NCBI GenBank assembly: GCA_035635555.1
Contig: DASQAT010000041.1
Location: 62,001 to 126,000 of the forward strand
Direction of reading: 5' to 3'
DNA: 64,000 nt
Source of the DNA: Candidatus Dormiibacterota bacterium
GTDB taxonomy: Bacteria; Acidobacteriota; Polarisedimenticolia; Gp22-AA2
This document shows, piece by piece, positions 26,956-44,372 of this stretch. Position 1 is the stretch's first letter. Every line of letters starts with the position of its first letter. A program made the translations under genes and the position numbers. The notes below the pieces were generated by a model. That model was not told the DNA's origin and searched no databases. It saw nothing but the letters and a program-made list of their open reading frames with translations.

Positions 26956-27930
26956 TCAAGACGCCCCTGACGTCCCGCGGCGTTCAGGGCCGCTTCGGCG
27001 CAGCACCAGGGCCGACCAGGGCCGGGAGCGCCGTCTGTCGACGAGAGCGAAGCGATGCCGCCGGGCGGCCCGCATGAGGTCGACTTCGTCGTCCACCAGG
27101 ATCCCTGCGAGGATGGCGTGCCCGCCCGGCGCCAGGGCGGCGTGGATAGCCGGAATAATTCTGCCTATGGTCGCGGCACCGATGTTGACCAGCAGGAGGT
27201 CGAACGGGCCGTAGCGCGCCGCCTCCGAAGCATCTGCGCACACCAGCTCGATGAGTCCCGACAACCCGTTGTCTTTGAGGTTGAGGCGCGCCACCGACAG
27301 CGCCACCCTGTCGGTATCGATCGCGACCACGCGTCCGGCTCCGAGACGACGGGCGGCCATCGCCAGGATCCCGCTGCCCGCACCCAGGTCGGCGACACGC
27401 TGTCCGACAGCGAGGTGCCGCTGCAGGAGTCGCAGGCAGAGGCGGGTGGAGGCATGTTCGCCCGTCCCGAACGCCTGGCCGAATCGCACCCGCAGTGTGT
27501 GGCGGCCGGGTCTCCGCGCGGGGACTCCGCACCCCTCCGGCACCACCAGGAAAGTCCCGATGACCATCGGCCGCAGCGTTCTCTGCCACCTCTCGACCCA
27601 GCGACCGGGCCCGACCGAGCGCAGACGAAAGCGTCCGGGCGGGGCCAGTCCGGCGCCCAGCAGGGCGGTTTGCAGGCGGCCGCCGAGCCGCCTCGCTCCC
27701 GCCCGGCCCGGGAAGTACGCGTCGAGCGTCAGGCGCGGCACCGAGCCGGACGCGACGATCTGGATGCCGAGACAGCCGTTCTCCCACAGCGCCGCAACCG
27801 CCTGCTCTTCGAGCGCGGGCGGGACGACGAGTCTGGCGCGCAGGAACGTCGATCGGGTGCCGGCGGGGGCGCTCAGGTGAAGATGTCCTTGACCCGGGTT
27901 TCTGGACCGCTTGACTGTCGATGACTTCAA
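26956..27930 (-). CDS. prmA: Ribosomal protein L11 methyltransferase, with element-supplied 5' end
   Basis: SAM-dependent methyltransferase of the PrmA family. The catalytic domain shows HTLRVRFGQAFGTGEHASTRLCLRLL, motif I VADLGAGSGILAMAA, VVAIDTDRVAL and the family block PFDLLLVNIGAATIG. Homology to the normal N-terminus begins near FLRARLVVPPALEEQ, just after attL. The native start is unclear: no ATG or GTG lies nearby, only a CTG at 27876 overlapping the old dnaJ stop. The element supplies an in-frame TTG at 27930 with AGGGG seven bases upstream, and an ATG at 28020 inside the recombinase gene. I use 27930, which adds about 18 foreign residues. Confidence 0.75.
   Translation of the reverse strand: MKSSTVKRSRNPGQGHLHLSAPAGTRSTFLRARLVVPPALEEQAVAALWENGCLGIQIVASGSVPRLTLDAYFPGRAGARRLGGRLQTALLGAGLAPPGRFRLRSVGPGRWVERWQRTLRPMVIGTFLVVPEGCGVPARRPGRHTLRVRFGQAFGTGEHASTRLCLRLLQRHLAVGQRVADLGAGSGILAMAARRLGAGRVVAIDTDRVALSVARLNLKDNGLSGLIELVCADASEAARYGPFDLLLVNIGAATIGRIIPAIHAALAPGGHAILAGILVDDEVDLMRAARRHRFALVDRRRSRPWSALVLRRSGPERRGTSGAS
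27877..27897. repeat. attL: left 21-bp direct repeat
   Basis: A perfect 21-bp match to 43156-43176, starting GTGAAGATG and ending TGACCCGG. Read on the minus strand it encodes the last DnaJ residues RVKDIFT, and the next bases give the original dnaJ stop (TGA at 27875-27873). It is therefore the old end of dnaJ, left attached to prmA. Confidence 0.93.
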
Positions 27931-27964
27931 CGAGTATCCCCTATTGAAATCGCGTGAGACATGC

Positions 27965-29092
27965 TCAGGACGCGGCGTTCGAGGCATCGCTGCCGCGATT
28001 CGTGTCCACGCCTTGTCCACGTGACTCCTCCTGCGCCTTCGGCCGGCCCATGTAGGCCAGGCTCTCCCGCTGGTAGTCCGGGGACGCCTTCGCGTACCGC
28101 TCGGTCAGCCGGATGTCCGAATGCCCGAGGATGTCCTTGAGCCGGAACAGATCGCCGTTGTTCTGTCGGAACCATGTCGCCCCGGTGTGCCTGGTCGTGT
28201 GTGGCGTGACCCACGATGGAAGTCCGGCATTCTTGCGCGCCGTCTTCCAGGCGCTGTCGATCCTCGTGATCGGCCGCCCGCGGTGCGTGAACACCCGGTT
28301 GTGTGACGTGAACCGAACCCGCCCGAGCTCGCGGAGGATGGCGATGGCGACCGGCGTCAACGGGACGGTCCTCGCCTTCCCCGACTTCGTGCTCTCGGCC
28401 TTAAACGTCACGCGCTCCGCCCCTGGCGTCAGGTCGACGTCGGACCACTCGAGCATAAGGGTCTCGGTCTTGCGGGAGCACACCTCGAACATGAGCCCGA
28501 GGATCGGTTTCGCGTGCGGCGCCGCGGCCGCAATCAGCTTGTCCGCCTGCTCGGGCGTAAGGTAGTGATCCTCGTCGGGCTCGGGCTCGTCGAACCGCAG
28601 TCGCCGGCAAGGATTGTCCCCGGCGAAGATCCCCGCCTCGTCCCGGGCCCAGGTAAACAGGCGCGATAGGAAGGCGACCTCGCGGTTGACGGTGGACTTG
28701 GAGACGGTCCCGGCTCCCCTCTTGAGCTTCGGCTGTTGCAGCCGGAGGGTGCGGTAACGGTTGACCTCCGCCCTCGTGATCGAGCCGATCGGCAGGTCGC
28801 CGAAGTGCTTCGACAGAGGCTCGAGGCGGACCTGGTAGGTCTCGGGCCGGCGGGAAGTGACCTTGACGTATTCGACCATGAACCGCGCGGCCGCCTCTCC
28901 GAACGGCATCGGCTTGATAGTGCCGAGCGTCGGGTGCATCCCGCGGGCGACCTGCTCCTGGAGCTGCCCAAGGAGGATCTCCGCGTCCCTCTTGCTGGGC
29001 CCCACCTTGACGCGCTTCCGTTTGCCCATCCGGGTCGCCGGGCTCCGGTAGTCGATGTAGTAGGTCGAGCCACGCTTGATGATCTTCGCCAT
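27965..29092 (-). CDS. Tyrosine recombinase / integrase adjacent to attL
   Basis: A 375-residue phage-type integrase. The N-terminal arm-binding-like region (KIIKRGSTYYIDYRSPATRMGKRK) is followed by a SAM-like core-binding domain (about 65-155) and the catalytic domain. The residues are complete: Arg207, Lys236 (STKSGKART), His298 and Arg301 (TPHTTRH), His324 (LGHSDIRLT) and Tyr333 (ERYAKA). The gene ends 67 nt from attL, the normal position for the integrase that catalysed insertion. Its last codons contain two copies of a TGTCCAC motif that recurs near attR. It lacks the C-terminal domain of the other two recombinases. Confidence 0.95.
   Translation of the reverse strand: MAKIIKRGSTYYIDYRSPATRMGKRKRVKVGPSKRDAEILLGQLQEQVARGMHPTLGTIKPMPFGEAAARFMVEYVKVTSRRPETYQVRLEPLSKHFGDLPIGSITRAEVNRYRTLRLQQPKLKRGAGTVSKSTVNREVAFLSRLFTWARDEAGIFAGDNPCRRLRFDEPEPDEDHYLTPEQADKLIAAAAPHAKPILGLMFEVCSRKTETLMLEWSDVDLTPGAERVTFKAESTKSGKARTVPLTPVAIAILRELGRVRFTSHNRVFTHRGRPITRIDSAWKTARKNAGLPSWVTPHTTRHTGATWFRQNNGDLFRLKDILGHSDIRLTERYAKASPDYQRESLAYMGRPKAQEESRGQGVDTNRGSDASNAAS
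28003..28020. repeat. Left pair of TGTCCAC repeats, candidate integrase arm sites
   Basis: TGTCCAC starts at 28003 and again at 28014, an 11-bp period, in direct orientation. The same pair with the same 11-bp spacing and orientation occurs at 42996-43013 near attR. The pair is 106 bp inside attL. Arm-type sites commonly occur as spaced direct repeats on both flanks; binding is inferred. This copy also encodes part of the integrase C-terminus. Confidence 0.4.
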
Positions 29093-29123
29093 CTCTACCT
29101 CCCGCCCTTGCCGGGCTTCGCTC

Positions 29124-29633
29124 TCACAATTCTCCCCGGAGAATTTGTCGGGCCAATCTTGCGGCGCCCTCCCACGGATGACGCTTACACTCCAAAGCGG
29201 CTTTGTGTACCAGTGCGCTCCACTGGTCCATGATTCTGCCGGCCCATGCCTCGTCAGCCGTTAGCAAGTCGCCTCGTTCCCACAGCTCCTCAAAGGCCGC
29301 CGCGATCTCGTTCCAGCGTTCACTAACTGAAGGCTCATCAAAGAACTGTTCCATCAGATCAGAGACCGCGGCTACGTCGCCAAGGCATATTTCAAACTGC
29401 GCCTTCGTCTCTCTCGTGTACGAGAACCGATCTTGTCCTGCCTCCTCGGGGGCGGGCGCAACTCGTCGCAAGGCTGCGAGTGCTCGGCGATACTCAGCGC
29501 CCGACCTGGTCAACCTGTAGTAGAGCGAGGCTGCCTGCTGCAAGAGGCCGAATTTGAACTCGCTCATCTTCCCGTACCGACCAAGGAGGTAGGCCAACAC
29601 GACGGCCCCTAGAGAGACCAGCGCGCCTATCAT
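29124..29633 (-). CDS. Membrane-anchored protein of unknown function
   Basis: A 169-residue protein with one N-terminal membrane segment (MIGALVSLGAVVLAYLLGRY), followed by a charged, helical cytoplasmic part. No family was recognised. Its ATG overlaps the stop of the upstream 64-residue gene by 4 nt (ATGA), so both are probably translated together. It lies 31 nt before the attL-proximal integrase on the same strand. Its sequence is visibly richer in A and T than the neighbouring chromosome. A superinfection-exclusion role would be typical of such cargo but is not shown. Confidence 0.65.
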   Translation of the reverse strand: MIGALVSLGAVVLAYLLGRYGKMSEFKFGLLQQAASLYYRLTRSGAEYRRALAALRRVAPAPEEAGQDRFSYTRETKAQFEICLGDVAAVSDLMEQFFDEPSVSERWNEIAAAFEELWERGDLLTADEAWAGRIMDQWSALVHKAALECKRHPWEGAARLARQILRGEL

Positions 29634-29824
29634 GTGTTCTTCCTCTGTGTCCGTGGCATCGCCTTCACGCCCCAGTAGGCCAGCGCCCTCTTGAGCCGCT
29701 TCGGCTCAGGGTCCCGGCCGAGATACTCGAGGACCTTCTGTCGGATTGTGCCACTACTGCGCCGCGCCTCCACGATGTAGTAGTAGCGCCGCTTCCCTCG
29801 CCTGCTCACTCTCAGGTAGGCCAT
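29630..29824 (-). CDS. Small basic protein, transposase-N-terminus-like
   Basis: A 64-residue basic protein (YLRVSRRGKRRYYYIVEARRSSG, then IRQKVLEYLGRDPEP). This stretch resembles the first 40 residues of IS4/IS1634-type transposases, yet no catalytic domain follows and the frame ends with its own stop. It could be a nucleic-acid-binding protein in its own right or a transposase relic. It is coupled to the downstream membrane protein by an ATGA overlap, which favours a functional gene. Confidence 0.55.
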   Translation of the reverse strand: MAYLRVSRRGKRRYYYIVEARRSSGTIRQKVLEYLGRDPEPKRLKRALAYWGVKAMPRTQRKNT

Positions 29825-29896
29825 ACGATCCCAAGTGTGTCACTACGGAATGGATGTGTCAAGAGGCAATTGTCCCGGGGTCGACCGGCCCCTCCT

Positions 29897-30163
29897 CTAT
29901 CTCCCCGCGAAGGTGCCGAGGAGCTGAAACAGAAACCCAACGACCAGGAAACCAAGCCCGATGCGATTGCGCTGTTCCCAAGTTCGCGCAAGGGACTCGT
30001 ATTCAGCCCGGTCCTTGTCAGGATCCCAGTCGTTCGGCGCAATGAGCGCATAGGAGGGTCGCCACCCGGGCGGCGTCGCGCCGCGCCAGAGATAAACCGC
30101 CCCGATGAGATCGAGCACGAGTCCGGCCCGACCTGCGAAAATCTCTAGAATCGTCGATGTCAT
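29897..30163 (-). CDS. Small two-helix membrane protein
   Basis: An 88-residue protein with a hydrophobic segment at each end (ILEIFAGRAGLVLDLIGAVYLW and GLGFLVVGFLFQLLGTFAG) and a short hydrophilic loop rich in Asp, Glu and Arg between them. It is shaped like a hairpin membrane protein. No family was recognised. It lies between the twin recombinases and the third recombinase. A holin is conceivable from topology alone, but no endolysin is nearby and the loop is longer than usual, so I make no functional call. Confidence 0.55.
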   Translation of the reverse strand: MTSTILEIFAGRAGLVLDLIGAVYLWRGATPPGWRPSYALIAPNDWDPDKDRAEYESLARTWEQRNRIGLGFLVVGFLFQLLGTFAGR

Positions 30164-30199
30164 CGATCCTCCTCATGTCCCGGCGCGGGTCTGTGGTCT

Positions 30200-30231
30200 G
30201 GACGGGCGAAGCCGCGCCGGGCCGCCCGTCC
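30200..30231 (-). terminator. GC-rich hairpin after the twin recombinase genes
   Basis: Perfect 9-bp stem GGACGGGCG (30200-30208) with CGCCCGTCC (30223-30231) and a 14-nt loop, starting 3 nt past the recombinase stop at 30234. There is no U-tract, so it may be a weak or factor-assisted terminator or an mRNA 3' stabiliser. Confidence 0.35.
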
Positions 30232-30233
30232 GA

Positions 30234-31529
30234 TCAGCTCTTCAGATACTTGACGATCGCCGGCGCCAGGTCCTCGAGACGGTAGCCGCGCCGGCTCGCC
30301 CCGTTCGACTGCACCCATCCAGCGAGGATCCCCATCGGCCTGAGCATGGCGGCCAGGATCCGGGAGCGGTCCATCTTCGGCCCGCTCAGGCTCGTCCACC
30401 GTGCCGACGCGCCCATCTCTTCCAGGATGCGGCTCGTCGGGAGAGAGCCCCCCCGGCGCTTCAGGAGGGCCGCAAGGTCCGCGAGCAGCGCGAGGGATTC
30501 ATCCGAGACACACGAGGCGGGCGCACTCGGCAGGAGCGACGGCGCTGGTAGTGGAGCATCCGCGATAATGGGTGCCCGCTTCGGCGTGGCCGGTTTCAAC
30601 CTACCCGGGATGCCGATGAACTCGAGGCCCTCCTGCAGACGACGTCGGCTCAGGTGAGCGTACCTCTCGGTCATCTGGATAGAGCTGTGCCCGAGGTACT
30701 GTTTCAGGCGATAGAGGTCCCCCCCGTTCTGCACGAACATGCTCGCGAAGCAGTGACGCAGATCGTGGTAATGAAAATCCGAGATGCCTGCTCGACGGAC
30801 AGCTTTCTCGAAGGCCTGCCTCATGACGCCGGCGCGCGTCCCGGCGAACGCGAAGACGTATTCCTCTCGACCGAAATGTTCTTGGATCCTCCGCCATTCA
30901 CGGAGCACGTCGGCAAGCTCGCGCGCCAGGGGGACGTCGCGGCTCTCTCCGCTCTTCGTCGTCTCGGCCCGGAAACGGACAGTGCCGAGATCGAAGTCGA
31001 TCTCCTGCCACTTCAGCTGCAGGGTCTCGCCGCGCCGGCCGCCCGTGTAGATGAGCGTCATGATGAACTGCATGAGGCAGGGCGTTCGGATCGTCGGCTT
31101 GCACTCGGCGAGTAGCCGATCGATCTCTTCGGGCTTCAGGTAGCGGACTCTGCCGCGCGACTCGTGGAACCTTCGAATGCGGCGCACTGGGTTGTCGAGA
31201 CAGTAACCGCGCTCAGTGCCCCAGGTGAACATCTTTGACAGCATGGCGCACGTGCGGTTCACGGTGGAGCCCTTGACGCCTTGGCGGATCCGGGCGGATC
31301 GGAAGGCCTGGACGTCGTTGACTCCTATTTCGTGGAATCGTTTGTCCGAGAAAAAGCGCCGCAGGATCCCGAGTGTGCTGTCGTAGGAGCCGCGTCGGTC
31401 TCTGAGCGTGACCAGGTGCACGGCCTTAAACTCGTCGGCGACTTCGTCGAAGGTGCGCGCGATAACTCGAGCCGCGGGATCGACGAGGTTGCGGATCTCG
31501 CGCAGGAGATCGATTTCAGCGGTGGACAT
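30234..31529 (-). CDS. Tyrosine recombinase with DUF3631-like C-terminal domain (copy B)
   Basis: A 431-residue protein paralogous to its upstream neighbour. The core-binding domain spans about 25-120 and the catalytic domain 130-300, with Arg165 (YTGGRRGE), Lys192 (TTKSGES), His255 and Arg258 (HDLRHCF), His281 (LGHSSIQMT) and Tyr290. After a Pro/Ala linker, residues 343-431 (LALLADLAALL, then ILEEMGASARW, ILAAMLRPMGI and RRGYRLEDL) resemble the end of DUF3631, a domain usually found behind phage primase or helicase modules. It begins 12 nt after copy C, so the two are cotranscribed. The substrate is unknown. Confidence 0.9.
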   Translation of the reverse strand: MSTAEIDLLREIRNLVDPAARVIARTFDEVADEFKAVHLVTLRDRRGSYDSTLGILRRFFSDKRFHEIGVNDVQAFRSARIRQGVKGSTVNRTCAMLSKMFTWGTERGYCLDNPVRRIRRFHESRGRVRYLKPEEIDRLLAECKPTIRTPCLMQFIMTLIYTGGRRGETLQLKWQEIDFDLGTVRFRAETTKSGESRDVPLARELADVLREWRRIQEHFGREEYVFAFAGTRAGVMRQAFEKAVRRAGISDFHYHDLRHCFASMFVQNGGDLYRLKQYLGHSSIQMTERYAHLSRRRLQEGLEFIGIPGRLKPATPKRAPIIADAPLPAPSLLPSAPASCVSDESLALLADLAALLKRRGGSLPTSRILEEMGASARWTSLSGPKMDRSRILAAMLRPMGILAGWVQSNGASRRGYRLEDLAPAIVKYLKS

Positions 31530-31541
31530 CGCGGCCTCCCC

Positions 31542-32876
31542 TCAGTCCCTGGCGTGCGCGACGAAGGCGCTCGCGATGTCTTCGACTCTGTATCCCTTCT
31601 CGTTCGCGCCCTTCCAGTGGATCTGCCTCGGACGCACGCCCACATCCCGGAGGATCCGGCCGATCTGGCGTCCGGCCTCAATCGGCTCATCGCCAATCCA
31701 AGCCCAGCGGTCCATTTTCGTGAGACGTTGGACGAGGAGCGCTGTCGCGATCTGCGGGTTATGTTCCATCGCGAAAATGGCGACCAGGTCCTCGAGAAGA
31801 GCCGCTGCGTTCCCCTTCTTGGGGGTCTGCTTGGGCTCCTGGACATCCGTCGCCTCGTGAGCGTCGCTTGGTGGGACCTCCGGGGGCGGGGCCGGCGGAG
31901 CCTGCTTGACGAGCTTGAGCGGCGCGCGCACGGTCCCGGGGATTCCGATGAAGCTCACCGCTTGCTGCATGAAATCCTCGGAGAGATGGCTGTAGCGCTC
32001 CGTCAGGCTGATGCTGCTGTGACCAAGGAGCCGCTGCAGGCGGTAGATGTCCCCACCGTTCATGACGAAGTTAGATGCGAACGAGTGGCGCAGGTCGTGG
32101 AAGCGGACATCCTCGAGGCCGGCCTTCTTGCGGGCGTGAATGAAGGCCGTCCTGACACACGCGAGCGGCCGGCCCACGTAGGTGAAGACATGATCCGGAT
32201 CCCAGCCGTAGTCCGTCAGGTGCCTGCGGGCCTCTCGAAGGTTGTGGAGCATGCGGGCCAGCTCCGGCGCCAGCGGGATCGTTCTTCCTTTCCCGCTTTT
32301 CGTGGTCTCGCGTCGGAAGGTCAGGATGCCTCTCTCGCAGTTGACCTCAGACCAACGGAGCTTCAGCAGTTCGCTCAGGCGGCCGCCGGTGTAGATCGCG
32401 GCGAAGACGAGCTCTCGAAGGTGGGGCTTGCAGGCCTTCAACAACCTCTCGGTCTCGTCCTTCGTAAGAAACCGCGTGCGCCCGGCGCTCTCTCTGAATT
32501 TCTTGACGTTCTTGACGGGGTTGACAATTGCGTACCCCTGCTCGACGCTCCAGCGGAACAGGCTGGAGAGAATAGCCCGCTGGCGGTTGACCGTGGCATG
32601 GCACACTCCGGTTTTCAACCGCGCCAGGATCATCTGCTGAATGTCGGCCGGGGTGATCTCGTGCAGGAGCCGATCGTGGAAGTGATCATCGAGCAGCTTG
32701 AGATTACTCCGAATGGTCCTGGGGTCCGATCGGAGCGTGCTCGCGTGACTTACCATGAACTCCTGCGCAGCCTTGTCGAACCGTTTCGGCAGGAGACGGA
32801 AGGACGGGTCGACGAGCTCCCTGACTCGGCGGATTTCATCGAGTAGGACGACGTTGTCTTCAGCAGTTGCAGGCAT
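31542..32876 (-). CDS. Tyrosine recombinase with DUF3631-like C-terminal domain (copy C)
   Basis: A 444-residue protein and the first gene behind the promoter at 33068-33096. Catalytic residues are complete: Arg166 (YTGGRLSE), Lys193 (TTKSGKGRT), His260 and Arg263 (FHDLRHSF), His286 (LGHSSISLT) and Tyr295. After a Pro-rich linker, residues 356-444 carry LLEDLVAIFAMEHN, LLVQRLTKMDRWAW, IGRILRDVGVRPRQI and KGYRVEDIASAF, matching the C-terminal DUF3631 pattern. The ATG follows a good AGGGAGG site. Similarity to copy B over the full length indicates tandem duplication. Neither copy needs to be the element's own integrase, because a third one sits at attL. Confidence 0.92.
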   Translation of the reverse strand: MPATAEDNVVLLDEIRRVRELVDPSFRLLPKRFDKAAQEFMVSHASTLRSDPRTIRSNLKLLDDHFHDRLLHEITPADIQQMILARLKTGVCHATVNRQRAILSSLFRWSVEQGYAIVNPVKNVKKFRESAGRTRFLTKDETERLLKACKPHLRELVFAAIYTGGRLSELLKLRWSEVNCERGILTFRRETTKSGKGRTIPLAPELARMLHNLREARRHLTDYGWDPDHVFTYVGRPLACVRTAFIHARKKAGLEDVRFHDLRHSFASNFVMNGGDIYRLQRLLGHSSISLTERYSHLSEDFMQQAVSFIGIPGTVRAPLKLVKQAPPAPPPEVPPSDAHEATDVQEPKQTPKKGNAAALLEDLVAIFAMEHNPQIATALLVQRLTKMDRWAWIGDEPIEAGRQIGRILRDVGVRPRQIHWKGANEKGYRVEDIASAFVAHARD

Positions 32877-32948
32877 GACGGCCTCCCTGGGGAAGGGCGG
32901 CGGCCGGCGGGTGAAGGAGGGGAAGGACGCGCCGGACGTCGCGGTGTT

Positions 32949-33062
32949 TGGAGACAGCCACAGCGCCGGCGCGCCTCTTGCCCGAAGGCAAGCTTGCCCG
33001 ATCCGAGGCCTCGGATATACGCGGACAAAGAAAAGCCGCGACGTTCGCCATGACTGTCTCCA
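32949..33062 (-). ncRNA. Predicted structured RNA or leader upstream of the twin recombinases
   Basis: On the minus strand the segment starts with TGGAGACAG (33062-33054) and ends with its exact complement CTGTCTCCA (32957-32949), closing a 114-nt unit. Inside are three further hairpins: CGCGG/CCGCG with an 11-nt loop (33040-33020), ATCCGA-GGCC-TCGGAT (33016-33001, a perfect palindrome) and CTTGCC-TTCG-GGCAAG (32992-32977, a cUUCGg tetraloop). The -10 box ends 6 nt upstream, so transcription should begin almost exactly at the closing stem. It may be an independent RNA or a regulatory leader. Function is unknown, and a 67-codon frame also crosses it. Confidence 0.45.
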
Positions 33063-33067
33063 CGGCC

Positions 33068-33096
33068 TATATACGCCCGGGGCCCGGTGGTGTCAA
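33068..33096 (-). promoter_or_regulatory. Near-consensus promoter of the recombinase operon
   Basis: Minus strand TTGACA (33096-33091), exactly 17 nt, then TATATA (33073-33068). The -35 is perfect and the -10 matches at 4 of 6 positions. It faces the structured segment and the two recombinase genes. It lies in the 246-bp gap after the small 70-residue gene and is the best promoter found inside the element. Confidence 0.65.
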
Positions 33097-33122
33097 CCTC
33101 AGGTGCACACGTCTGCAAACCG

Positions 33123-33335
33123 TCAGTGCTTCTCGCCGCTCATCCCGCGCGCGACGAGCATCCGGGCGATACCTTCCATCTGCGGTATGCCCTTCGCGAG
33201 TAATTCGGAGAGGGGAAGCACGGGATAGCGGCGCTCGAGCTCCTTCAGGATCTCAACCACCGCCTCCCCCCGCCGACCCAGCTCCTTCCAGAACTCCTCC
33301 GACGTCATCTCCTGCAACGGCTTCGGTTCGTCCAT
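33123..33335 (-). CDS. Small acidic phage protein, unknown
   Basis: A 70-residue helical protein (MDEPKPLQEMTSEEFWKELG, ending RMLVARGMSGEKH) starting 2 nt after the tape-measure stop. No family was recognised. Close spacing to the tape-measure gene and an in-frame ATG support that it is real. It is the last gene before the recombinase promoter. Confidence 0.55.
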   Translation of the reverse strand: MDEPKPLQEMTSEEFWKELGRRGEAVVEILKELERRYPVLPLSELLAKGIPQMEGIARMLVARGMSGEKH

Positions 33336-33337
33336 GG

Positions 33338-34915
33338 CTATCCCCCGATCTTCCCGCGGTTGTACATCCGATCGATGATGACCAGGTCGCGCTTGAGCTG
33401 CTTGAGCTGCTCGGTGCGGCGCGCGCCGATGATGGAATGGTTCTGCGTGTTCAGCGTGATCCCACGGTCGATGGTGGTGTAGTTGTGCGTGACCTGCTGG
33501 GCCATCGCCGCGGGCAGCTCGCGCGAGAACGTTCCTCCAAAGTGCCGGGCGAAGTCCTCGGCCGACTTCCGGCCCATCTTCGCCGCGACCCGATCCGCGA
33601 AGGGGTCATCGAACCCAGCGCCGGCGCTCTCGATCGCCTTCACGTTCGCAAGACCGGTGGCCACGGCCAGGGCGGCGAACGGGATCGTCCAGGGCGGCCC
33701 GGGATACTGATTCAGCGCCTTGTCCGCCGCGGCGTAGGTATCGATCAGGGCGGCTGCGATGTTGATCGCCTTGTTCTTCGTGAACAGACCGGCAAAGACG
33801 GCGGCGGCCTGGACCCCGGAGGCGATCGAGTCTTCGTGAAACTGGCGCTCCGCGTTCGCCCTCTCGCGGAGCATCTTCCGTTCCGCGACGGCCTGCCTGG
33901 CTTCCTGCAGCGCGGCTTTCCCCGATGCCATCGTGCTCTTGTGGACGGCCTCTTCGGCTTCCTTCGCGCCCTTGACCGCCATCTTGCCGCGCTCACCCTC
34001 AGCGGTGGTGAGATCGGTCAGGAACTGCTCTTCCTTGAAGTGCTGCTCGTCCGACCTGCGGAAGGCTGCGTCCATTTCCCGCTGTAACTTGATCAGGTCC
34101 TCGGTCGCCTGCTTGCGGTCCTTGGTTGATTGCGTGACCTTGTCGGTCTGCGTTCTCCGCATATCCTCAACGATGATGCCCTTCTCCTCGGCGGCGAGTT
34201 GTTCAGTCAGGACGGCGCTCAGTCGATTGATCTCGTCGAGCGTCGCCGCCGCTTCATCCCGCAACTTCTGGACGCGGCTTGCTGTGGCACTGCCCGGCGC
34301 GGCCGTCTTCAGGAGCTTGTCGAAGTAGGCGATCTTGTCGGTCAAATCGCCCCACTTTTGTTCGAGGACGATCACCTTGCCGGTGTTCTCGCCGATCTCC
34401 CTCGATTGTTGTTTCAGGGCTTCAGAACGGACGGCTTTGACCTGTTCAGCGAGGGCCGTGTTGACGTTGCCGATCTTCTTGGCCAGCTCCTCGAGCTGGG
34501 GAAGCTGCGTGATGATCGATTGTGTCAGCTCGTCCTGTTTCTTTTTCGCCTCGGCGCTTTCCTTTGAATACTCGCTGATTTTAGGGATGACGGTGACGGC
34601 GAAGAGCCCCCCCAGCGCCAGGAGCAGGTTGACCACCAGGCCCATGCCGCCGGTCATGAGTGCGAAGCCCTCTGCCGCGACCCGGCCCGCAGCACCGGCG
34701 CCTTGCATCACGCCGATGCCCTGGAGCAGCTCGGCGGTAAAGACCTTGATCTCGCGCCTGGAGATCTCCTGATTGATCGCCTTAAAGCCCGGCGCCGCAT
34801 CGTCAGTGGCGCCCTTCATCTTCTTGAGGGCGAGCTGCGCCTCCTCGAAGCCCTTGGAGTCCAGCAGGGCCTTGATGACTACCTTAAGATCAGCGTCACC
34901 ATCGGACGTGGGCAT
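33338..34915 (-). CDS. Phage tail tape-measure-like protein
   Basis: A 525-residue protein, short for a tape measure. The N-terminal part is helical, with one hydrophobic stretch near residues 85-110 (GFALMTGGMGLVVNLLLALGGLFAVTVIP). A long coiled-coil region rich in Lys, Glu and Gln spans about 115-350. The C-terminal block NKAINIAAALIDTYAAADKAL plus FAALAVATGLANVKAIESA is characteristic of tape-measure C-termini. In tailed phages this protein sets tail length. Start ATG at 34915 follows GAGAGGTGAGCTC. The other tail genes expected beside it are missing apart from a gp10-like gene. Confidence 0.8.
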   Translation of the reverse strand: MPTSDGDADLKVVIKALLDSKGFEEAQLALKKMKGATDDAAPGFKAINQEISRREIKVFTAELLQGIGVMQGAGAAGRVAAEGFALMTGGMGLVVNLLLALGGLFAVTVIPKISEYSKESAEAKKKQDELTQSIITQLPQLEELAKKIGNVNTALAEQVKAVRSEALKQQSREIGENTGKVIVLEQKWGDLTDKIAYFDKLLKTAAPGSATASRVQKLRDEAAATLDEINRLSAVLTEQLAAEEKGIIVEDMRRTQTDKVTQSTKDRKQATEDLIKLQREMDAAFRRSDEQHFKEEQFLTDLTTAEGERGKMAVKGAKEAEEAVHKSTMASGKAALQEARQAVAERKMLRERANAERQFHEDSIASGVQAAAVFAGLFTKNKAINIAAALIDTYAAADKALNQYPGPPWTIPFAALAVATGLANVKAIESAGAGFDDPFADRVAAKMGRKSAEDFARHFGGTFSRELPAAMAQQVTHNYTTIDRGITLNTQNHSIIGARRTEQLKQLKRDLVIIDRMYNRGKIGG

Positions 34916-34955
34916 GAGCTCACCTCTCTTGCAGATTCGCCATGTTAATCTCGGT

Positions 34956-35567
34956 TCAGATTTTTCCTTTTGCTCGCAGCGCCTCGATGATGCGAGTCCT
35001 GATCATCGGCCCGACCCGGTCCCGTTCGGCATCGAAGGACGGCCGCAGGTAGGGATACGCCTGCTGATAGCGGGCGCGGACGCGCTTGACGAAGATCCAC
35101 TCGCTCTGGCCCGTCTTGCGGCTGGTCTTCTGCGCCGCATTGACGGCCGCCCGGATGGTGCCACCGCTCGCCAGGACCGCCCGGTAGCTCCCGCCGGAAA
35201 CGCCCTGGGTGTTCGGGAACATCAGGGCCTTCCCCTTCCGCGGGACGATCTCCGGAATCGGGCCGCCCTTCTCGAGGATGGCCGCATAGCCGGTCTTGTA
35301 GGGCATGGTAGAGCCGACGATCCCGCGGATGAATTTACCTTCGCGCTTGACGTCGCTGGTGATGGATCCGGCAAGTCCCGCGGCGCCGCGCCGTTGCATC
35401 GGATGAGGGCCGGCGTACAGTCTTACCTTCACTCGTGCCAGGATCGTGAGTGTGGCATCGCGCATCCCCTTTTCAATACCGTCGAGGACGATCGACTCGT
35501 TCCTTTTCAACATCGCCAGCGCGGCGTCGGTGCCCTCGAGGACGATACGGATGACGGTCTCTCCCAT
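34956..35567 (-). CDS. HK97 gp10-like minor tail / head-tail protein
   Basis: A 203-residue protein with the layout of the gp10-like family: VIRIVLEGTDAALAMLKRN at the start, IVGSTMPYKTGYAAILEKGG (the conserved A..lE.G segment), then IPEIVPRKGKALMFPNT and a final RYQQAYPYLRPSFDAERDRV. Family members act at the head-tail joint or tail completion. It lies 8 nt after the 125-residue gene and 40 nt before the tape-measure gene, the expected relative order. The neighbouring connector genes are absent. Confidence 0.7.
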   Translation of the reverse strand: MGETVIRIVLEGTDAALAMLKRNESIVLDGIEKGMRDATLTILARVKVRLYAGPHPMQRRGAAGLAGSITSDVKREGKFIRGIVGSTMPYKTGYAAILEKGGPIPEIVPRKGKALMFPNTQGVSGGSYRAVLASGGTIRAAVNAAQKTSRKTGQSEWIFVKRVRARYQQAYPYLRPSFDAERDRVGPMIRTRIIEALRAKGKI

Positions 35568-35574
35568 GATCGAC

Positions 35575-35952
35575 CTACGCCAGGCCCGCGACGATGGCCG
35601 CGACGAGCTCGGCTTTCGCCCGGCCGAACGCGGTATTGAAGTCGCCCCCTTCCAGGCGGTGCACGTCCGTGCGCCTCCGCAGCTCCGCGAACAGGTCGGC
35701 GTGCGGGCGGTGGTACAGCTGCTCCATGACCTGCGCCGCCGCCGCGATCGTGATCGCTTCGACCACGGGGTCGCTCGCCGGGATTGGACGCGGAGGGTTC
35801 AGACTGATCGCGCTCGGCTGGCCCGGGCTGTTGCCCCGCGGTGGATCCGGCGTGCGGGCCGCGGTCACGCTCGGGCGCTTGATTGCCTCGATCCGGGCAC
35901 TGATGCCGTCGAGGGCGGACCGGATTTCCTGAAGTTCCTGACTTCGGTTCAT
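35575..35952 (-). CDS. Unknown phage protein
   Basis: A 125-residue protein with a short helical N-terminus, a Pro-rich middle (TPDPPRGNSPGQPSAISLNPP) and an Ala-rich helical second half. No family was recognised. It lies between the coiled-coil protein and the gp10-like gene with short gaps (26 and 7 nt) on the same strand, a position where capsid or connector genes would usually stand. Length and composition do not match those classes. Confidence 0.55.
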   Translation of the reverse strand: MNRSQELQEIRSALDGISARIEAIKRPSVTAARTPDPPRGNSPGQPSAISLNPPRPIPASDPVVEAITIAAAAQVMEQLYHRPHADLFAELRRRTDVHRLEGGDFNTAFGRAKAELVAAIVAGLA

Positions 35953-35978
35953 GGAACTGCTCCTTCCTGGCGCGCGTG

Positions 35979-36620
35979 TTATCGCGCGGTGATGTGAAAC
36001 CGCTCGTCCAGATTCCGATCGCCCTCCGGCTCGAAGCCCGCCAGGACGAACCTGATGTAGGTCTCGACGGTCCGGAAGCTCAGGCCTCCGGCGTCCTTGC
36101 CAGCGGTGCGGCGCACGAGCTCCGGCATGGGGATCGCCTGAACCGGACTCGCGAGGGGAAATTCCTCGCGCAGCCGAGCCGCCAGGCGCTTCCGCCTGAT
36201 GAGCGTGTCGCCGACGCCCTGGAGGGTCCGGATGAACTCCGGGACGAGGGCTTCCGCCTCGGCGCGCAGGGGCGCGGCCGCCGCCTCCTGGTCGCGTCGG
36301 GCCTGGTCGCTCTCCTCGCCGGCGACGAAGGACTCGAGGTCGGCGAGCTCGGCGCGCAGACTCTTGACCGCGTCGTCGAGGTGTGCTGTCTCGCGGCGGT
36401 GCTCCTCGAGGGCGCGCTCGGCAATTCGAACGTCGGTGCGCTTCGCGCTGCCTTCGCGGTGCCGGCCCCGGACGTCCTCGAGCGCCGCGAGAAGCTGCGC
36501 GTCACGGTCGGCGGCGGCGCGGACCTCGTCCTGCAGGTCGGCCGCGCGCTTCTCGATCGCCGCGATCCGGGTCTTCGCCTCGGGGACGGTTCGGGTCTTC
36601 CTCGCTGTCGCTGTGGTCAT
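35979..36620 (-). CDS. Coiled-coil phage protein, unknown
   Basis: A 213-residue protein. Residues 10-140 are a nearly continuous predicted coiled coil rich in Ala, Arg, Glu and Asp (RIAAIEKRAADLQDEVRAAA, then LDDAVKSLRAELADLESF). The remainder is globular, ending DERFHITAR. It starts 11 nt after the terminase large subunit, the place normally held by the portal gene. A scaffold-like role is possible, but there is no capsid gene for it to serve, and I make no assignment. Confidence 0.6.
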   Translation of the reverse strand: MTTATARKTRTVPEAKTRIAAIEKRAADLQDEVRAAADRDAQLLAALEDVRGRHREGSAKRTDVRIAERALEEHRRETAHLDDAVKSLRAELADLESFVAGEESDQARRDQEAAAAPLRAEAEALVPEFIRTLQGVGDTLIRRKRLAARLREEFPLASPVQAIPMPELVRRTAGKDAGGLSFRTVETYIRFVLAGFEPEGDRNLDERFHITAR

Positions 36621-36631
36621 CGGTTTCCTTT

Positions 36632-38227
36632 TCAGGCTCGCCGGACGGCGCCGGCGGCCGCGAAAATGACGCGTTGGTGTTCGGTCGGTTGACGGACTTT
36701 GTCAGGTGAGGTGAGCGGCACGACCCGGATCGCCTCGCGCTTCTCCTGTCCTGGCGGGGGGAGCTCGCCGCGCTCCATCGCGTGCAGCCGTTCGAGCTGT
36801 CTGGCGAGCATCGCGAGGTAGGCGTCGGCGCCGCGGCCGCCGTAGAGCTCGTGCACGGCTAGCGCCAGGGCGCAGGCGCGATCGTCATGCAGACGTCCGG
36901 GCGCCGCGATGCGCTCGCCGCCGCCGGCCAGCCGCGTCACCTCGAGCAGCTTCAACTCGCGGCTCTGCTCGACGTCGTCCAGGAGCGCGATGCGCCGGCC
37001 GATGACGACCTCGCGGAGCGCCTTGAAGCCGAGGGTCTTCGGCGACCCGGGCCCCGAGGTGAACGGCCGTTCCTCGAGGTGGATCCCGGCGCGGGTGAAG
37101 TGGGCCTTCGTCACCTCGGAGCCGAACTGATCCGCGACGAGCCCCGTCAGCCCGAACAGGCGCAACTCGGACGCGATGTCCGTCACGACCTGGTCGACGC
37201 TCGACCCCGGCCGCCAGGACCGGACGACGAATTGCGCGAGCTGGTCCTCCCTCCGGCCGAGGACCGTGAACGCCCACGGGTCGTTGCGCAGCCCGGACGG
37301 GTCGGTCGCGGCGACGTACCGGAACCCCGCCTCGGGCTCGCGGCGGGTGACCCGCGACTCGATGACCTTCTCCAGGTCTGCCGCCTCGAGGAAGGCCCCG
37401 GCGTTCTCCATGAACTCCGCGCCCAACTCGGCCGCCGCCATCACGGGGTCGTCGGCGAACTCGTCCGCCAGCGCCGCCGCGGACTTGTCGGGGCGCATCA
37501 GCGCAGTAGGCGCCTGGAGAACGAGCGTGCGCTCCGACCGTCCAAACTCCAGCTTGTGCAGGTCGTACAGGAGCCCCGTCTTCCTCCAGGGGGTTGAGAT
37601 CAGCACGATTTGACCGTCCGGAAGGACACGAACGCGAAACCCACGCAGGACGTCCCGGTCGTTGACGCGGTAATCGGCGTCCATGAAGAACGCCGTTTCT
37701 TCCATCACGACACGGTAGAAGCGTCGACCGCGGGGCGCGCGACCGCCCACCGTTGCAGGGAGGACGCCAATCTCCGTACCGCGCGTGAACCTGATCGAGT
37801 CCGTCGTTTCGCTCTCGACCTCGGCCGCGATGATGGGCGACGCTGAGATGGCGCCGCGAATGTACGACAACGGGATCGACGCCAGACGCGTGTCAGGCGC
37901 CATCAGTAGACCGTGAGCGCGCTGGCCAGGTCGAAGCCCCTTCAGGCTGCAGAAGAGCGCACCATGCAGGAGAGAGCCGCCGGCGATGACCGATTTCCCA
38001 CTGTCGGCTCCGCAGACCCAGGCGACCATTCGCCGGACCCGCCGAAGGTCCTCTCCCCAGGGCCGGCCGAGAGCTGTCTCGATAAAGTCCCGTTGCTCGG
38101 CATTCGCCGGCGGCAGGCCGTCGAAGGAGACACGAATCGCGGCCCGCTGGGCCATCGATGCCTCGGTGAAGGCGTAGAGCTGTGGGTCGATGATGAACTC
38201 CTCGTTGGTGATGTACGGGATGCTCAC
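36632..38227 (-). CDS. Terminase large subunit
   Basis: DNA-packaging motor of 531 residues. The ATPase half has a Walker A variant, VCGADSGKSVIAGG near residue 72, and a Walker B-like VVMEETAFFMDA near 173, with the coupling motif LISTPW following. The nuclease half has Asp residues in AATDPSGLRNDPWA near 310, GLVADQFGSEV near 365 and LHDDRACALALAVHE near 445, as expected for an RNase H-like fold. The GTG start overlaps the small-subunit stop by 4 nt. Its presence without portal or capsid genes is a hallmark of satellites or reduced prophages. Confidence 0.85.
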   Translation of the reverse strand: MSIPYITNEEFIIDPQLYAFTEASMAQRAAIRVSFDGLPPANAEQRDFIETALGRPWGEDLRRVRRMVAWVCGADSGKSVIAGGSLLHGALFCSLKGLRPGQRAHGLLMAPDTRLASIPLSYIRGAISASPIIAAEVESETTDSIRFTRGTEIGVLPATVGGRAPRGRRFYRVVMEETAFFMDADYRVNDRDVLRGFRVRVLPDGQIVLISTPWRKTGLLYDLHKLEFGRSERTLVLQAPTALMRPDKSAAALADEFADDPVMAAAELGAEFMENAGAFLEAADLEKVIESRVTRREPEAGFRYVAATDPSGLRNDPWAFTVLGRREDQLAQFVVRSWRPGSSVDQVVTDIASELRLFGLTGLVADQFGSEVTKAHFTRAGIHLEERPFTSGPGSPKTLGFKALREVVIGRRIALLDDVEQSRELKLLEVTRLAGGGERIAAPGRLHDDRACALALAVHELYGGRGADAYLAMLARQLERLHAMERGELPPPGQEKREAIRVVPLTSPDKVRQPTEHQRVIFAAAGAVRRA

Positions 38228-38814
38228 GGCTTCACCTCAGACGGCCGCGCGTTGCTTCGCGTCGTGGGCCCCGTTGCGCGATCGGGCGCAGGCGAGACCG
38301 ATGGTGCCGACGCGGTCGCGTTCGCGTCTCCTGAGGCTGCTGAGCCCCCCTGACGCTCTGCCAGGTAGTCCCCGAGCGACGGCACGCGACGCGCTAGGCG
38401 GTCGAGCCCCACGTCCTTGTAGCGCCGCGCCGCCAAATCCATGAACGTCGCGATGACGTGCACGGCCTCGTATCTCGAGGGGTGCGGTACGTGTCCGGCC
38501 GCCCGGCTCTGTTTCATCTTGTCCACGACCTCAGCAAGCAGGGCGAGCACGAATCCGTCCGCGGCGAGCCCAATGCTGAGGACTCTCCGACGCAACTCGG
38601 AGACGGTCTCCGCACCCCCGAGGTCGGCGAGCGCCCGAGCCTCCAGGTCCTTGAGGCCCGCGCACAGATAGTCGAGCTCCGCCAGGCCCACCGCACGACG
38701 GTCCCCGACGGCTGCCAGTGCTCCGGCCTCGTGCGGTCCGCGCGGGTAACGTCGACCGTGACCCGATTTGGGGGCCTTCCGAGAGCGTTCTGCGGCCTTC
38801 TTCGCCGTGGTCAT
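38224..38814 (-). CDS. Probable terminase small subunit
   Basis: A 196-residue basic and helical protein immediately upstream of, and overlapping by 4 nt, the large subunit. The basic N-terminus (KKAAERSRKAPKSGHGRR) could bind DNA, helical segments span about 40-150 and the tail is low-complexity Ala/Ser/Pro. No clear helix-turn-helix family signature was recognised, so the call rests on position, size and coupling. Confidence 0.6.
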   Translation of the reverse strand: MTTAKKAAERSRKAPKSGHGRRYPRGPHEAGALAAVGDRRAVGLAELDYLCAGLKDLEARALADLGGAETVSELRRRVLSIGLAADGFVLALLAEVVDKMKQSRAAGHVPHPSRYEAVHVIATFMDLAARRYKDVGLDRLARRVPSLGDYLAERQGGSAASGDANATASAPSVSPAPDRATGPTTRSNARPSEVKP

Positions 38815-38952
38815 TCCGTGGACACCTGTCTCCGCAAGTCGCTACAGGGCGTGGGTTTCAGGAGCGCGCGAGGACTCGGCGTCCTTTGCACGCCCCCGCG
38901 CGCCCCCGGCGAGGACGATAGCTGCCTGCGCGCTCGGACGCTGCGGCCCCGC

Positions 38953-39558
38953 TCAGTGCACATCCGCCCCTCCTGGTTCTGGCAGTGCATCAAGCCCCGC
39001 GGTCTGTCGTCGTCGCTCTTCGGCGATGAGGCGTCGGCCCTCTTCCTCGTCCCTCCGGTACTTCTCCTGCTGTCTCTCGAAGGGGGTTTTTCTTGCTCTT
39101 CCGGCAGACCCCTGTAGTTCTTCTTCTGATCTTGCTGTGGTGTCCAACAGACGGTCTGCGGTGGTGTCTGTTGTGGTGTCGGCTACTGTCTCGCCTGCAA
39201 CGGCGTACAACGCCCACCGCTCAAGCGTTACGACGATGCCGGTGTAGTGCGGAGCCCCTGTCGGCGTCCATGCAGCCTCACCGGCATTTCTCAGGAACTC
39301 CGCTGCCCACCGGCATTTCGCGAGGGTGGGAGTCTTGCGCTTCCGGTTCTCGGTCCAGGCCATCTGTTCGGCGAGAGATTTCCACGACGTCACGAGCTGT
39401 CCGGGAGCGAGATTCAGGTCCGTTTCTGTCGTGCGCGGGGCGTAGGCGGCCAGGCTCATCAGGAGCATCCAGAAGTCGCGCGTGAAGGGATCGGCCTCCT
39501 TGAACCAGGGCGCGTCGCGGACGGCACGCGGCACGGCAACCCAGCCGGTGCGGCTCAC
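38953..39558 (-). CDS. Phage replication initiation-like (winged-helix) protein
   Basis: A 201-residue protein from the GTG at 39558, overlapping the helicase stop (GTGA). The pattern is that of phage replisome organisers: GWVAVPRAVRDAPWFKEADP, DFWMLLMSLAAYAP, LAPGQLVTSWKSLAEQMAW (helix-turn-helix), then YTGIVVTLERWALY. The C-terminal third is charged and disordered-looking, with a DTTTDTTADRLLDTT stretch. Partners of this type bind an origin and recruit helicase, and the adjacent DnaB-like gene fits. The longer in-frame open stretch upstream is an overlap with the helicase gene. Confidence 0.72.
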   Translation of the reverse strand: MSRTGWVAVPRAVRDAPWFKEADPFTRDFWMLLMSLAAYAPRTTETDLNLAPGQLVTSWKSLAEQMAWTENRKRKTPTLAKCRWAAEFLRNAGEAAWTPTGAPHYTGIVVTLERWALYAVAGETVADTTTDTTADRLLDTTARSEEELQGSAGRARKTPFERQQEKYRRDEEEGRRLIAEERRRQTAGLDALPEPGGADVH

Positions 39559-40946
39559 GAGCCCTCCGTCCCGTCGCTGATGCGCAGGGTCTCTACGTCC
39601 AGGTGCATGCAGAAGCTCGGCAGGGGGCCGCGGCGGTTCTTCACGAGCCGGCCCCAGAGCTGGCCGCGGGACCGGTGCTTCTCGAGCGGGCCGGTGGTCG
39701 AGGAGAGTTCTGGCCTCCACAGGGTCAACATGAAGTCCGCCGCCTCCTCCACCTGGCCCGAGTCGCGCGCGGCGTCGAGCCCCAGCTCCTTGGCGCCCTC
39801 GCTCTTCTCCTGGTCCTGGTCGCGGCCGGCCTGCGAGATGAGAACGACCGCGCACTCATGGCGCTTCGCGAACGACTTCACGTCGACGGCCGCCTCGGAA
39901 ACGCGCTGGTAGAGGGGCAGGTTCTTCGCCCCCGAGCTCAGGAGCCCGAGGTAATCGATCGCGACCAGGCGAGGGGGACGCTCGAGCTTTGCCGACGCCT
40001 GCAGCATTGAGGAGTCGAGCTCCGAGATCCCGCTCTTGCCGCGGTCGACGACGATGATGTTGACCGCCATGCCGTTGAGCGCGGCACGCTGTGATGCAGT
40101 CAGGGCGGACCAGCCGGCGGCGCCCAGACGCTCCACGAGCGCGCGCGACAGTCCGAGCCGTTGCTGGACAAGGCGCTCGAACGCCTGGGTGCGTGGCATC
40201 TCGAGGGAGAAGAAGACGCAGGGCTCGCCCTCGATCGCTGCGTTGTGGAGGATCTGACTCGCGATGGCGCTCCCGCCGACCTGCGGGCGTTTGACGATGG
40301 TAAGCACCTCGCCCGGGCGCATACCATCGGTCGCCTCATCGAGCGGCCGAATCCGGGTCCAGACCTTCTGGCCACGACCGCGCGTGACGTTCGCCGAGTA
40401 GTCGCTCATCAGCTCGTGCGTGCTGGCGCACCCCTTCCGCGCCTCGGGATCTACGGCGATCGTCTGCCGGTAGAGATCGCTTCCTGCCTCGAGGAGGGCC
40501 GATGTCTCATGTCCGTTCGTGCACGCGCCGGCGAGACAAAGCGCACCCTCCATGATCCCGCGCCGCACCGCCTTGTCCTTCACGATCCGTGCGTAGTGCT
40601 GCACGTTTGAAGACTTCGGAACGCCGTCGACGAGCGACGCGATGAAAGCGGGCCCGCCGACGGTCTCGAGCTGACCGGCGCCCGCGAGCCTCTCCTTCAG
40701 CATCACGAGATCGATCTCCCTCGACACGTTCGATACGGCGACCATCGCTTCCCAGATCAGGCGGTGGTTCGGGATGAAGAAGTCATCGGCCGAGAGGAGC
40801 TGCCGCGCGCCGGCGAGCACGGAAACGGGATTCAGGCCGGCGAGGATGCCGCCAAGGACGGAGGCCTCCGCCTCCCTTGAGTGGGGGACCCGCTCCTCGA
40901 GTTCGGCGACGGTCGGCGTGCTCTTCTGGCCCTTCCTCACCGGCAC
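39555..40946 (-). CDS. DnaB-like replicative helicase with degenerate Walker A
   Basis: A 463-residue DnaB-family protein from the GTG at 40946 (VPVRKGQKSTPTVAELEERVP). The N-terminal DnaB domain is HSREAEASVLGGIL followed by LSADDFFIPNHRLIWEAM. In the RecA-like domain the Walker A position reads VKRPQVGGSAIA near residues 217-228: the consensus Lys is Gly225 and the first Gly is Lys. Walker B VAIDYLGLLSSG and the later ISQAGRD and GQVEEAADFMLTLWRP blocks are conserved. As written it should not hydrolyse ATP normally. The start overlaps the zinc-motif gene by 10 nt. An upstream ATG at 41048 would run through that gene and is less likely. Confidence 0.85.
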   Translation of the reverse strand: MPVRKGQKSTPTVAELEERVPHSREAEASVLGGILAGLNPVSVLAGARQLLSADDFFIPNHRLIWEAMVAVSNVSREIDLVMLKERLAGAGQLETVGGPAFIASLVDGVPKSSNVQHYARIVKDKAVRRGIMEGALCLAGACTNGHETSALLEAGSDLYRQTIAVDPEARKGCASTHELMSDYSANVTRGRGQKVWTRIRPLDEATDGMRPGEVLTIVKRPQVGGSAIASQILHNAAIEGEPCVFFSLEMPRTQAFERLVQQRLGLSRALVERLGAAGWSALTASQRAALNGMAVNIIVVDRGKSGISELDSSMLQASAKLERPPRLVAIDYLGLLSSGAKNLPLYQRVSEAAVDVKSFAKRHECAVVLISQAGRDQDQEKSEGAKELGLDAARDSGQVEEAADFMLTLWRPELSSTTGPLEKHRSRGQLWGRLVKNRRGPLPSFCMHLDVETLRISDGTEGS

Positions 40947-41119
40947 GTTGTGAGCTCCAGTTCGTGGTGATGCTGCGAGCACGCGCCGCGGCCGGCGAGA
41001 TAGAAGATCGGCGTTCCGTCGCAACCAGGGTGACTGCAGCTGTCGCACCCGGGCTGCGCGACCAGCGCAACCTGTTCCTGGTCGGATGGCATGGCGATCG
41101 TTTTCTTTTCTACTGGCAC
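40937..41119 (-). CDS. Small Cys/His protein, putative zinc-binding
   Basis: A 60-residue protein carrying CDSCSHPGCDG and, 11 residues later, CSQHHHELE. The spaced Cys and His suggest a single zinc site. The gene overlaps its neighbours by 10 nt at both ends (41110-41119 and 40937-40946), so it is embedded in a coupled chain: DnaB-N protein, this protein, helicase, initiator. A helicase-loading accessory role is an inference from position. No family was recognised. Confidence 0.6.
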   Translation of the reverse strand: MPVEKKTIAMPSDQEQVALVAQPGCDSCSHPGCDGTPIFYLAGRGACSQHHHELELTTCR

Positions 41120-41364: not shown

Positions 41365-41408
41365 GGTTCCGCACCTCCCGGCCGCGCTCGAACGCGGCCG
41401 TATTTATT

Positions 41409-42995: not shown

Positions 42996-43013
42996 TGTCC
43001 ACCGATTGTCCAC
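42996..43013. repeat. Right pair of TGTCCAC repeats, candidate arm sites
   Basis: TGTCCAC starts at 42996 and again at 43007, an 11-bp period and in the same orientation as the left pair at 28003-28020. It lies 142 bp inside attR in non-coding sequence. Equal spacing at both ends of the element argues for a protein-binding function. Confidence 0.45.

Positions 43014-43151: not shown

Positions 43152-44372
<1,221 letters not shown>

What the first reader, a model, noticed from the sequence alone, without database searches (positions are those of the whole stretch)
30234..32876. Twin tyrosine recombinases fused to a DUF3631-like C-terminal domain
Two adjacent paralogues, 12 nt apart, each keep all catalytic residues and add an about 90-residue tail with the pattern LLaDL...F / L...W / ILr..G / KGYR.ed. 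That pattern is known to me from the C-terminus of DUF3631 proteins, which usually accompany primase or helicase modules. A recombinase with this tail, in duplicate, is not an arrangement I recognise. The tail could read DNA or contact replication proteins.
Basis: partly seen in the sequence, partly recalled or inferred. Interest (0 to 1): 0.72.

Follow-up and report, generated by a model that had tools for sequence, protein, structure and literature searches.

The report
Twin recombinases with replication-initiator winged-helix tails
A 15-kb phage-like element inserted at the end of a chaperone gene carries two side-by-side DNA-recombining enzymes that lack the usual front-end DNA-gripping domain and instead end in a DNA-binding-type domain otherwise seen here only in replication-initiator proteins of mobile elements, a combination found nowhere else in the collections searched.

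Summary
Two intact minus-strand tyrosine recombinases (IntB 30234-31529, IntA 31542-32876; 12 nt apart; all catalytic residues kept) each end in a ~95-residue domain homologous to the C-terminal half of DUF3631. IntA passes the Pfam cut-off. IntB does not, but scores 27.6 bits on a profile of free DUF3631 tails, where shuffles reach about 5. AlphaFold2 models the tail as a winged helix (pLDDT 87) behind a disordered linker. DUF3631 proteins are AAA+ replication initiators (RepAM) of integrative elements.

Both enzymes lack the N-terminal arm-binding domain that nearly all relatives have. A third recombinase, IntC (27965-29092), has it. The three lie in a 15,279-bp phage-like element in the 3' end of dnaJ, with a 25-nt att core repeat at each end and a paired putative arm site (GTGGACAA-N3-GTGGACA) inside each. 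No other recombinase with this tail was found in several hundred genomes, IMG/VR scans, phages or plasmids.

Likely mechanism (inferred): IntC integrates the element. IntA and IntB act as a pair, their tethered winged helices supplying the second DNA contact that an arm-binding domain normally gives. New variant of a known kind; nothing tested in vitro; no orthologue of the twins found.

The parts
31542..32876 (-). IntA: tyrosine recombinase, 444 aa, no arm-binding domain, C-terminal DUF3631-type winged helix
   Evidence: ORF; Pfam Phage_integrase 1.3e-29 and DUF3631 2.1e-9; catalytic residues
30234..31529 (-). IntB: paralogous tyrosine recombinase, 431 aa, same architecture
   Evidence: ORF; Pfam Phage_integrase 5.7e-33, DUF3631 7.4e-4; own profile 27.6 bits
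31545..31829 (-). IntA tail, residues 350-444, winged-helix module
   Evidence: AlphaFold2 pLDDT 87, pTM 0.80, H-E-H-H-E-E-H; VIA-align best Z 7.4 to Rex winged helix
30237..30512 (-). IntB tail, residues 340-431
   Evidence: HMM and alignment
31830..31946 (-). IntA proline-rich linker (residues 311-349), predicted disordered
   Evidence: pLDDT about 45
27965..29092 (-). IntC: third tyrosine recombinase, 375 aa, with N-terminal arm-binding-type domain, no tail; likely the element's integrase
   Evidence: Pfam 2.4e-24; arm-binding profile of relatives 35.3 bits, absent from IntA/IntB
27873..27897 (-). att core copy next to prmA
   Evidence: 25-nt direct repeat, 24/25 identical to 43152-43176, spacing 15,279
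43152..43176 (-). att core copy that is the 3' end of dnaJ
   Evidence: kin genomes L178-L180 keep GTCAAGGACATCTTC at the dnaJ end, uninterrupted into prmA
28003..28020 (-). putative arm site GTGGACAAGGCGTGGACA, 105 nt inside the core
   Evidence: one of only two exact dimers in 64 kb
42996..43013 (-). putative arm site GTGGACAATCGGTGGACA, 138 nt inside the core
32877..33122 (-). intergenic leader upstream of IntA with a perfect 14-bp palindrome (33002-33015)
   Evidence: such palindromes are not rare here (14 in 64 kb)
36632..38227 (-). terminase large subunit of the host element
   Evidence: phrog_2 4.5e-17; 64% identical relative in a same-class genome
39555..41048 (-). DnaB-like replicative helicase of the host element
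   Evidence: Pfam DnaB_C 1.1e-31

Best explanation
IntA and IntB are active 'simple' tyrosine recombinases (core-binding plus catalytic domain only) that have taken on, at their C-termini, the winged-helix module with which RepAM/DUF3631 replication initiators end. SHOWN: the fusion, the homology, the intact active sites, the absence of an arm-binding domain, the predicted winged-helix fold on a flexible linker, the dnaJ-integrated element with att cores and paired putative arm sites, and a third recombinase that has the arm-binding domain. INFERRED: IntC, next to one att core, integrates and excises the element using the GTGGACA arm sites. IntA and IntB, probably made from one operon and with tails that differ much more (26% identity) than their cores (47%), work as a heteromeric pair in the manner of XerC/XerD or Tn554 TnpA/TnpB, each tail holding its own DNA site next to the core site and so giving the second DNA contact and directionality that an N-terminal arm-binding domain gives in ordinary phage integrases. 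The module was probably captured from a replication gene of the same kind of element, since DUF3631 genes often lie beside integrase genes. The site on which IntA/IntB act (the dnaJ att site or another) is not known.
For: DUF3631 homology. Winged-helix model whose nearest solved structures are mostly winged helices: Rex, Cdt1, ORC/Cdc6, and the oriT-binding relaxosome protein of pCW3. Disordered linker. Arm-binding domain present in IntC and absent in IntA, IntB and the nearest solo relative L009 (the PHROG match starts at residue 5 in IntC, 24 in IntB and 32 in IntA). All catalytic residues intact. Att cores and arms. DUF3631 = RepAM replication initiator of integrative elements (PMC3218068). 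Integrase within the fetched neighbourhood of the DUF3631 gene in 11 of 20 loci, upstream on the same strand in four of them. Survey: element-borne recombinases evolved by gaining a DNA-binding arm domain (PMC8138268).
Against: No DNA-binding or recombination data. The winged-helix class is very common and the best Z is only 7.4, which the tool says may mean a common arrangement; winged helices also mediate protein contacts. No orthologue of the twins was found, so conservation of the arrangement cannot be shown. IntA+IntB monophyly in the core tree is not resolved (AU p=0.26). No binding site for the tails was identified.
Confidence: 0.45

Rival explanations
1. The tail is a protein-protein adaptor that ties the recombinases to replication proteins (the element's DnaB-like helicase or host replisome), so that recombination is coupled to replication of the excised element.
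For: The module comes from replication initiators; the element encodes its own DnaB-like helicase; replication winged helices (Cdt1, ORC, MCM) are among the structural neighbours.
Against: The structural neighbours also include many plain DNA-binding regulators (Rex, PadR, MarR types); no free DUF3631 initiator in this genome; no interaction data.
Confidence: 0.2
2. IntA and IntB are the machinery of the dnaJ integration itself, as a trio with IntC (RIT/GInt-like division of labour).
For: Three recombinases of one clade (100/99 in the 37-row tree) at one end of the element; GInt, Tn554 and SE elements need two or more recombinase-type proteins (PMC5385486, PMC10214605, PMC3414803).
Against: IntC alone has the canonical phage architecture and lies next to one att core with arm sites; IntB and IntC are 1.1 kb apart with other ORFs between; a related phage-type element (terminase 64% identical) carries a single recombinase of this family, with an N-terminal extension and no tail, plus one weaker XerC-like hit.
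Confidence: 0.2
3. The twins are a leftover of a second element nested in a decaying prophage, and the tails are decaying passengers with no present function.
For: The element has a terminase and a neck-type protein but no portal or major capsid protein was recognised; tails are much more diverged than cores; no orthologues found.
Against: Both ORFs and both active sites are intact, with good ribosome-binding sites; family-invariant tail positions (LL.D, W, GY) are kept in both; no second set of terminal repeats noticed.
Confidence: 0.15

Closest known systems
DUF3631 / RepAM replication initiators (PF12307; pMEA300-type, actinobacterial ICEs; PMC3218068)
   Same: C-terminal ~95-residue winged-helix module
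   Different: RepAM-type proteins have an AAA+ ATPase core (PEKRCGKTTL, LLVDEADTF) before the module; here a tyrosine recombinase takes its place and the first ~80 positions of the Pfam domain are missing
Arm-binding-domain phage/ICE integrases (Int lambda, Tn916 class; PMC8138268)
   Same: Core-binding and catalytic domains of this lineage; an extra DNA-binding-type domain beyond the core
   Different: The extra domain is C-terminal, of a different fold, and on a flexible linker; the N-terminal arm-binding domain is absent
Simple phage integrases such as mycobacteriophage Brujita Int (PMC8138268)
   Same: No arm-binding domain
   Different: No C-terminal winged helix in the passages read; not known to me as a tandem pair
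Tn554 TnpA/TnpB, SE IntA/IntB, GInt GinABC, RIT elements
   Same: Two or three tyrosine-recombinase-type genes close together at one end of an element
   Different: No DUF3631-type tail described in the passages read; their hallmark partners (TnpC/GinD, Tfp, contiguous trio) were not recognised here

Membership tests
Tyrosine recombinase | Catalytic R-K-HxxR-H-Y set and Phage_integrase domain | tested here: met
   Pfam E 1e-24 to 6e-33; all residues present in IntA, IntB and IntC
Arm-binding-domain integrase | N-terminal arm-binding domain | tested here: not met
   IntA/IntB have only 27/21 residues before the core-binding domain and no match to the relatives' N-terminal profile; IntC matches at 35.3 bits
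DUF3631 (PF12307) / RepAM initiator | Profile match above the curated cut-off | tested here: inconclusive
   IntA 38.2 bits (above 24), IntB 20.2 (below), both only over the C-terminal half
DUF3631 (PF12307) / RepAM initiator | AAA+ ATPase core with Walker motifs | tested here: not met
   No Walker A motif in either protein; free DUF3631 proteins have it
RIT element | Three contiguous tyrosine-recombinase genes; RitA with two core-binding domains; RitC with a C-terminal helix | tested here: not met
   IntB and IntC are separated by 1.1 kb with other ORFs; no second core-binding domain matched in IntA/IntB
GInt | ginABCD operon with non-canonical GinC and small GinD | tested here: inconclusive
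   Three recombinases but all with a full catalytic set; no direct comparison with Gin proteins was run
Tn554-type transposon | Adjacent TnpA/TnpB with TnpC | not tested
   No Tn554 proteins were compared; only the tandem arrangement is alike
Site-specific integrative element at the dnaJ 3' end | Direct repeats of the target at both ends and an uninterrupted site in kin | tested here: met
   25-nt repeat, spacing 15,279; kin have dnaJ directly followed by prmA

The most novel reading that the evidence does not exclude
A new architecture of tyrosine recombinase in which a C-terminal winged helix taken from a replication initiator replaces the N-terminal arm-binding domain, used by two co-encoded, differently reading partners as a heteromeric, directional recombinase.
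Probability: 0.35. Interest if true: 0.7.

Novelty: new variant of a known kind. Interest (0 to 1): 0.52.

Why it matters
Gain of an N-terminal arm-binding domain is held to be what turned housekeeping recombinases into mobile-element integrases (PMC8138268). Recombinases that lost that domain and gained an unrelated DNA-binding-type module at the other end would be an independent solution to the same need, and would directly test what the arm contact is for: specificity, bridging or direction. They would also link recombination and replication-initiator modules by fusion. The pair has no detected tailed relatives, so its weight rests on experiment.

Tried and rejected
Tailed relatives were looked for without success. 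By full-length protein: IMG/VR, GTDB contigs (80 nearest of 261), all 41 class genomes held, 20 genomes of the nearest recombinases, 396 phylum genomes, 195 genomes of the phylum of L130. By tail: IMG/VR, phages and plasmids, 297 phylum genomes (only free DUF3631 genes and these two proteins). Scanning all ORFs fetched by then with the tail HMM gave no further recombinase. Two weak phage hits to the tail were an antisense chance match (H21) and a real DUF3631 protein (H23). PDB sequence search with the tail found nothing significant. Terminase relatives in IMG/VR: none. Tail tree: IntA and IntB tails join (96/57) but on long branches, so one versus two captures is unresolved. Frequent integrase-DUF3631 neighbourhood fits capture of the tail but proves nothing. 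The 14-bp palindrome upstream of IntA is one of 14 in the window, so not special. A tail alignment with distant DUF3631 members was too variable for the contig scan. No paper holding all of 'tyrosine recombinase', 'integrase', 'winged helix' and 'C-terminal extension' was found in the held library.

Full report
OBSERVATION. Both are tyrosine recombinases (Pfam Phage_integrase 5.7e-33 and 1.3e-29) with the full catalytic set, positions that are invariant in an alignment of 24 recombinases. Each ends in about 90 residues that match the C-terminal half of Pfam DUF3631: IntA above the curated cut-off (38.2 bits, cut-off 24), IntB below it (20.2). A profile made only from free DUF3631 proteins of the same phylum gives 43.5 and 27.6 bits, against about 5 for the best of 2000 shuffled tails. 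The tails match each other at 45 bits, 27% identity.

WHAT THE TAIL IS. AlphaFold2 on 34 aligned tails gives pLDDT 87 and pTM 0.80, with the order helix-strand-helix-helix-strand-strand-helix of a winged helix. The nearest solved structures are mostly winged helices: the Rex repressor DNA-binding domain (Z 7.4), Cdt1, ORC/Cdc6, and the oriT-binding accessory protein of the pCW3 relaxosome. Z stays below 8 and Foldseek E-values are not significant, so this shows a fold class, not a family. In full-length IntA, residues 311-350 are predicted disordered, so the tail is a tethered domain. Free DUF3631 proteins have an AAA+ ATPase core in front of this module, and the family is named RepAM, replication initiator of actinobacterial integrative elements (PMC3218068). 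IntA and IntB carry the module but not the ATPase, so they are not DUF3631 proteins.

WHAT IS MISSING. Nearly all relatives have roughly 50 or more residues before the core-binding domain and about 20 after the catalytic core. IntA has 27 and 134, IntB 21 and 126. A profile of the relatives' N-terminal domain matches the third recombinase of the window, IntC (27965-29092), at 35.3 bits but not IntA, IntB or their nearest relative L009. The twins thus have the extra domain at the other end from their kin. L009, from a genome of the same order, has neither domain and stands alone on its contig. IntA, IntB, IntC, L009 and L010 form one clade (100/99); whether IntA and IntB are each other's closest relatives is unresolved (AU p=0.26). 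Cores are 47% identical, tails 26%.

THE ELEMENT. The genes around are phage-like: terminase large subunit, a neck-type protein, a DnaB-like helicase, a helix-turn-helix protein. No portal or capsid protein was recognised. On either side lie dnaJ and prmA, neighbours in kin genomes. The last codons of dnaJ recur next to prmA as a 25-nt direct repeat (24/25) 15,279 bp away, and kin keep GTCAAGGACATCTTC at the dnaJ end, running on into prmA without an insertion. The element is therefore integrated into the 3' end of dnaJ. Inside each core, at 105 and 138 nt, is an exact dimer GTGGACAA-N3-GTGGACA with 11-bp period; these are the only two exact dimers in the 64 kb on both strands. Their position and spacing are like those of phage arm sites, and IntC, next to one core, has the domain that reads such sites. 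That IntC is the integrase is an inference.

RARITY. No second tailed recombinase was found among the 80 nearest GTDB loci and the IMG/VR relatives, 41 class and 396 phylum genomes, 20 genomes of the nearest recombinases, 195 genomes of the phylum of L130, or IMG/VR, phages and plasmids searched by tail; for the full protein no phage or plasmid match covers 80% of it. In 297 phylum genomes the tail profile finds only free DUF3631 genes and these two proteins. The samples overlap and are finite, so this means rare, not unique. Integrase genes lie near DUF3631 genes in 11 of 20 neighbourhoods, four of them upstream on the same strand, which makes capture of the tail by fusion plausible.

MECHANISM. 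Shown: architecture, homology, predicted fold, intact active sites, element ends. Inferred: IntC integrates and excises; IntA/IntB act as a pair whose tails hold DNA beside the core sites in place of arm-binding domains. Faster divergence of the tails fits two different sites but also fits relaxed constraint. Rivals are replication coupling, a three-recombinase machine, and an idle nested remnant. Pairs and trios of tyrosine recombinases are known (Tn554, GInt, SE, RIT); in the passages read, the main classification paper describes N-terminal arm domains, DUF3701, and a RitC C-terminal helix, but no C-terminal winged helix.

VERDICT. Observation confirmed, reading supported, function open. A new variant of a known kind.

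Noticed in passing
window 27873-43176: 15,279-bp integrative element in the 3' end of dnaJ, splitting dnaJ from prmA, with 25-nt core repeats and matching putative arm-site dimers inside both ends.
   Followed up: yes
window 27965-29092: A third tyrosine recombinase of the same clade, with an arm-binding-type N-terminal domain, next to one att core.
   Followed up: yes
window 33338-42885: The element has a terminase large subunit, a neck-type protein, a possible tape-measure protein and a DnaB-like helicase, but no portal or major capsid protein was recognised: a decayed prophage or a satellite-like element.
   Followed up: partly
L293 / L297 (G030:C13): A same-class genome has a 64% identical terminase near a recombinase of this family with an N-terminal extension and no tail (541-aa open frame) and a weaker XerC-like hit; the other element proteins show no detectable match there.
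   Followed up: partly
L240:506-1513: Nearest relative of IntA (46% identity over the core): a solo recombinase with neither arm-binding domain nor tail, preceded by a directly repeated stretch.
   Followed up: partly
window 29124-30163: Three small ORFs of unknown function between IntB and IntC, with no convincing Pfam match.
   Followed up: no
L125:2968-4320, L133:79-1653, L103:2733-4250, L128:2772-4319, L124:2802-4319: In Brocadia-type loci an ORF just upstream of the integrase gives a consistent but non-significant tail-profile score (8-11 bits).
   Followed up: no
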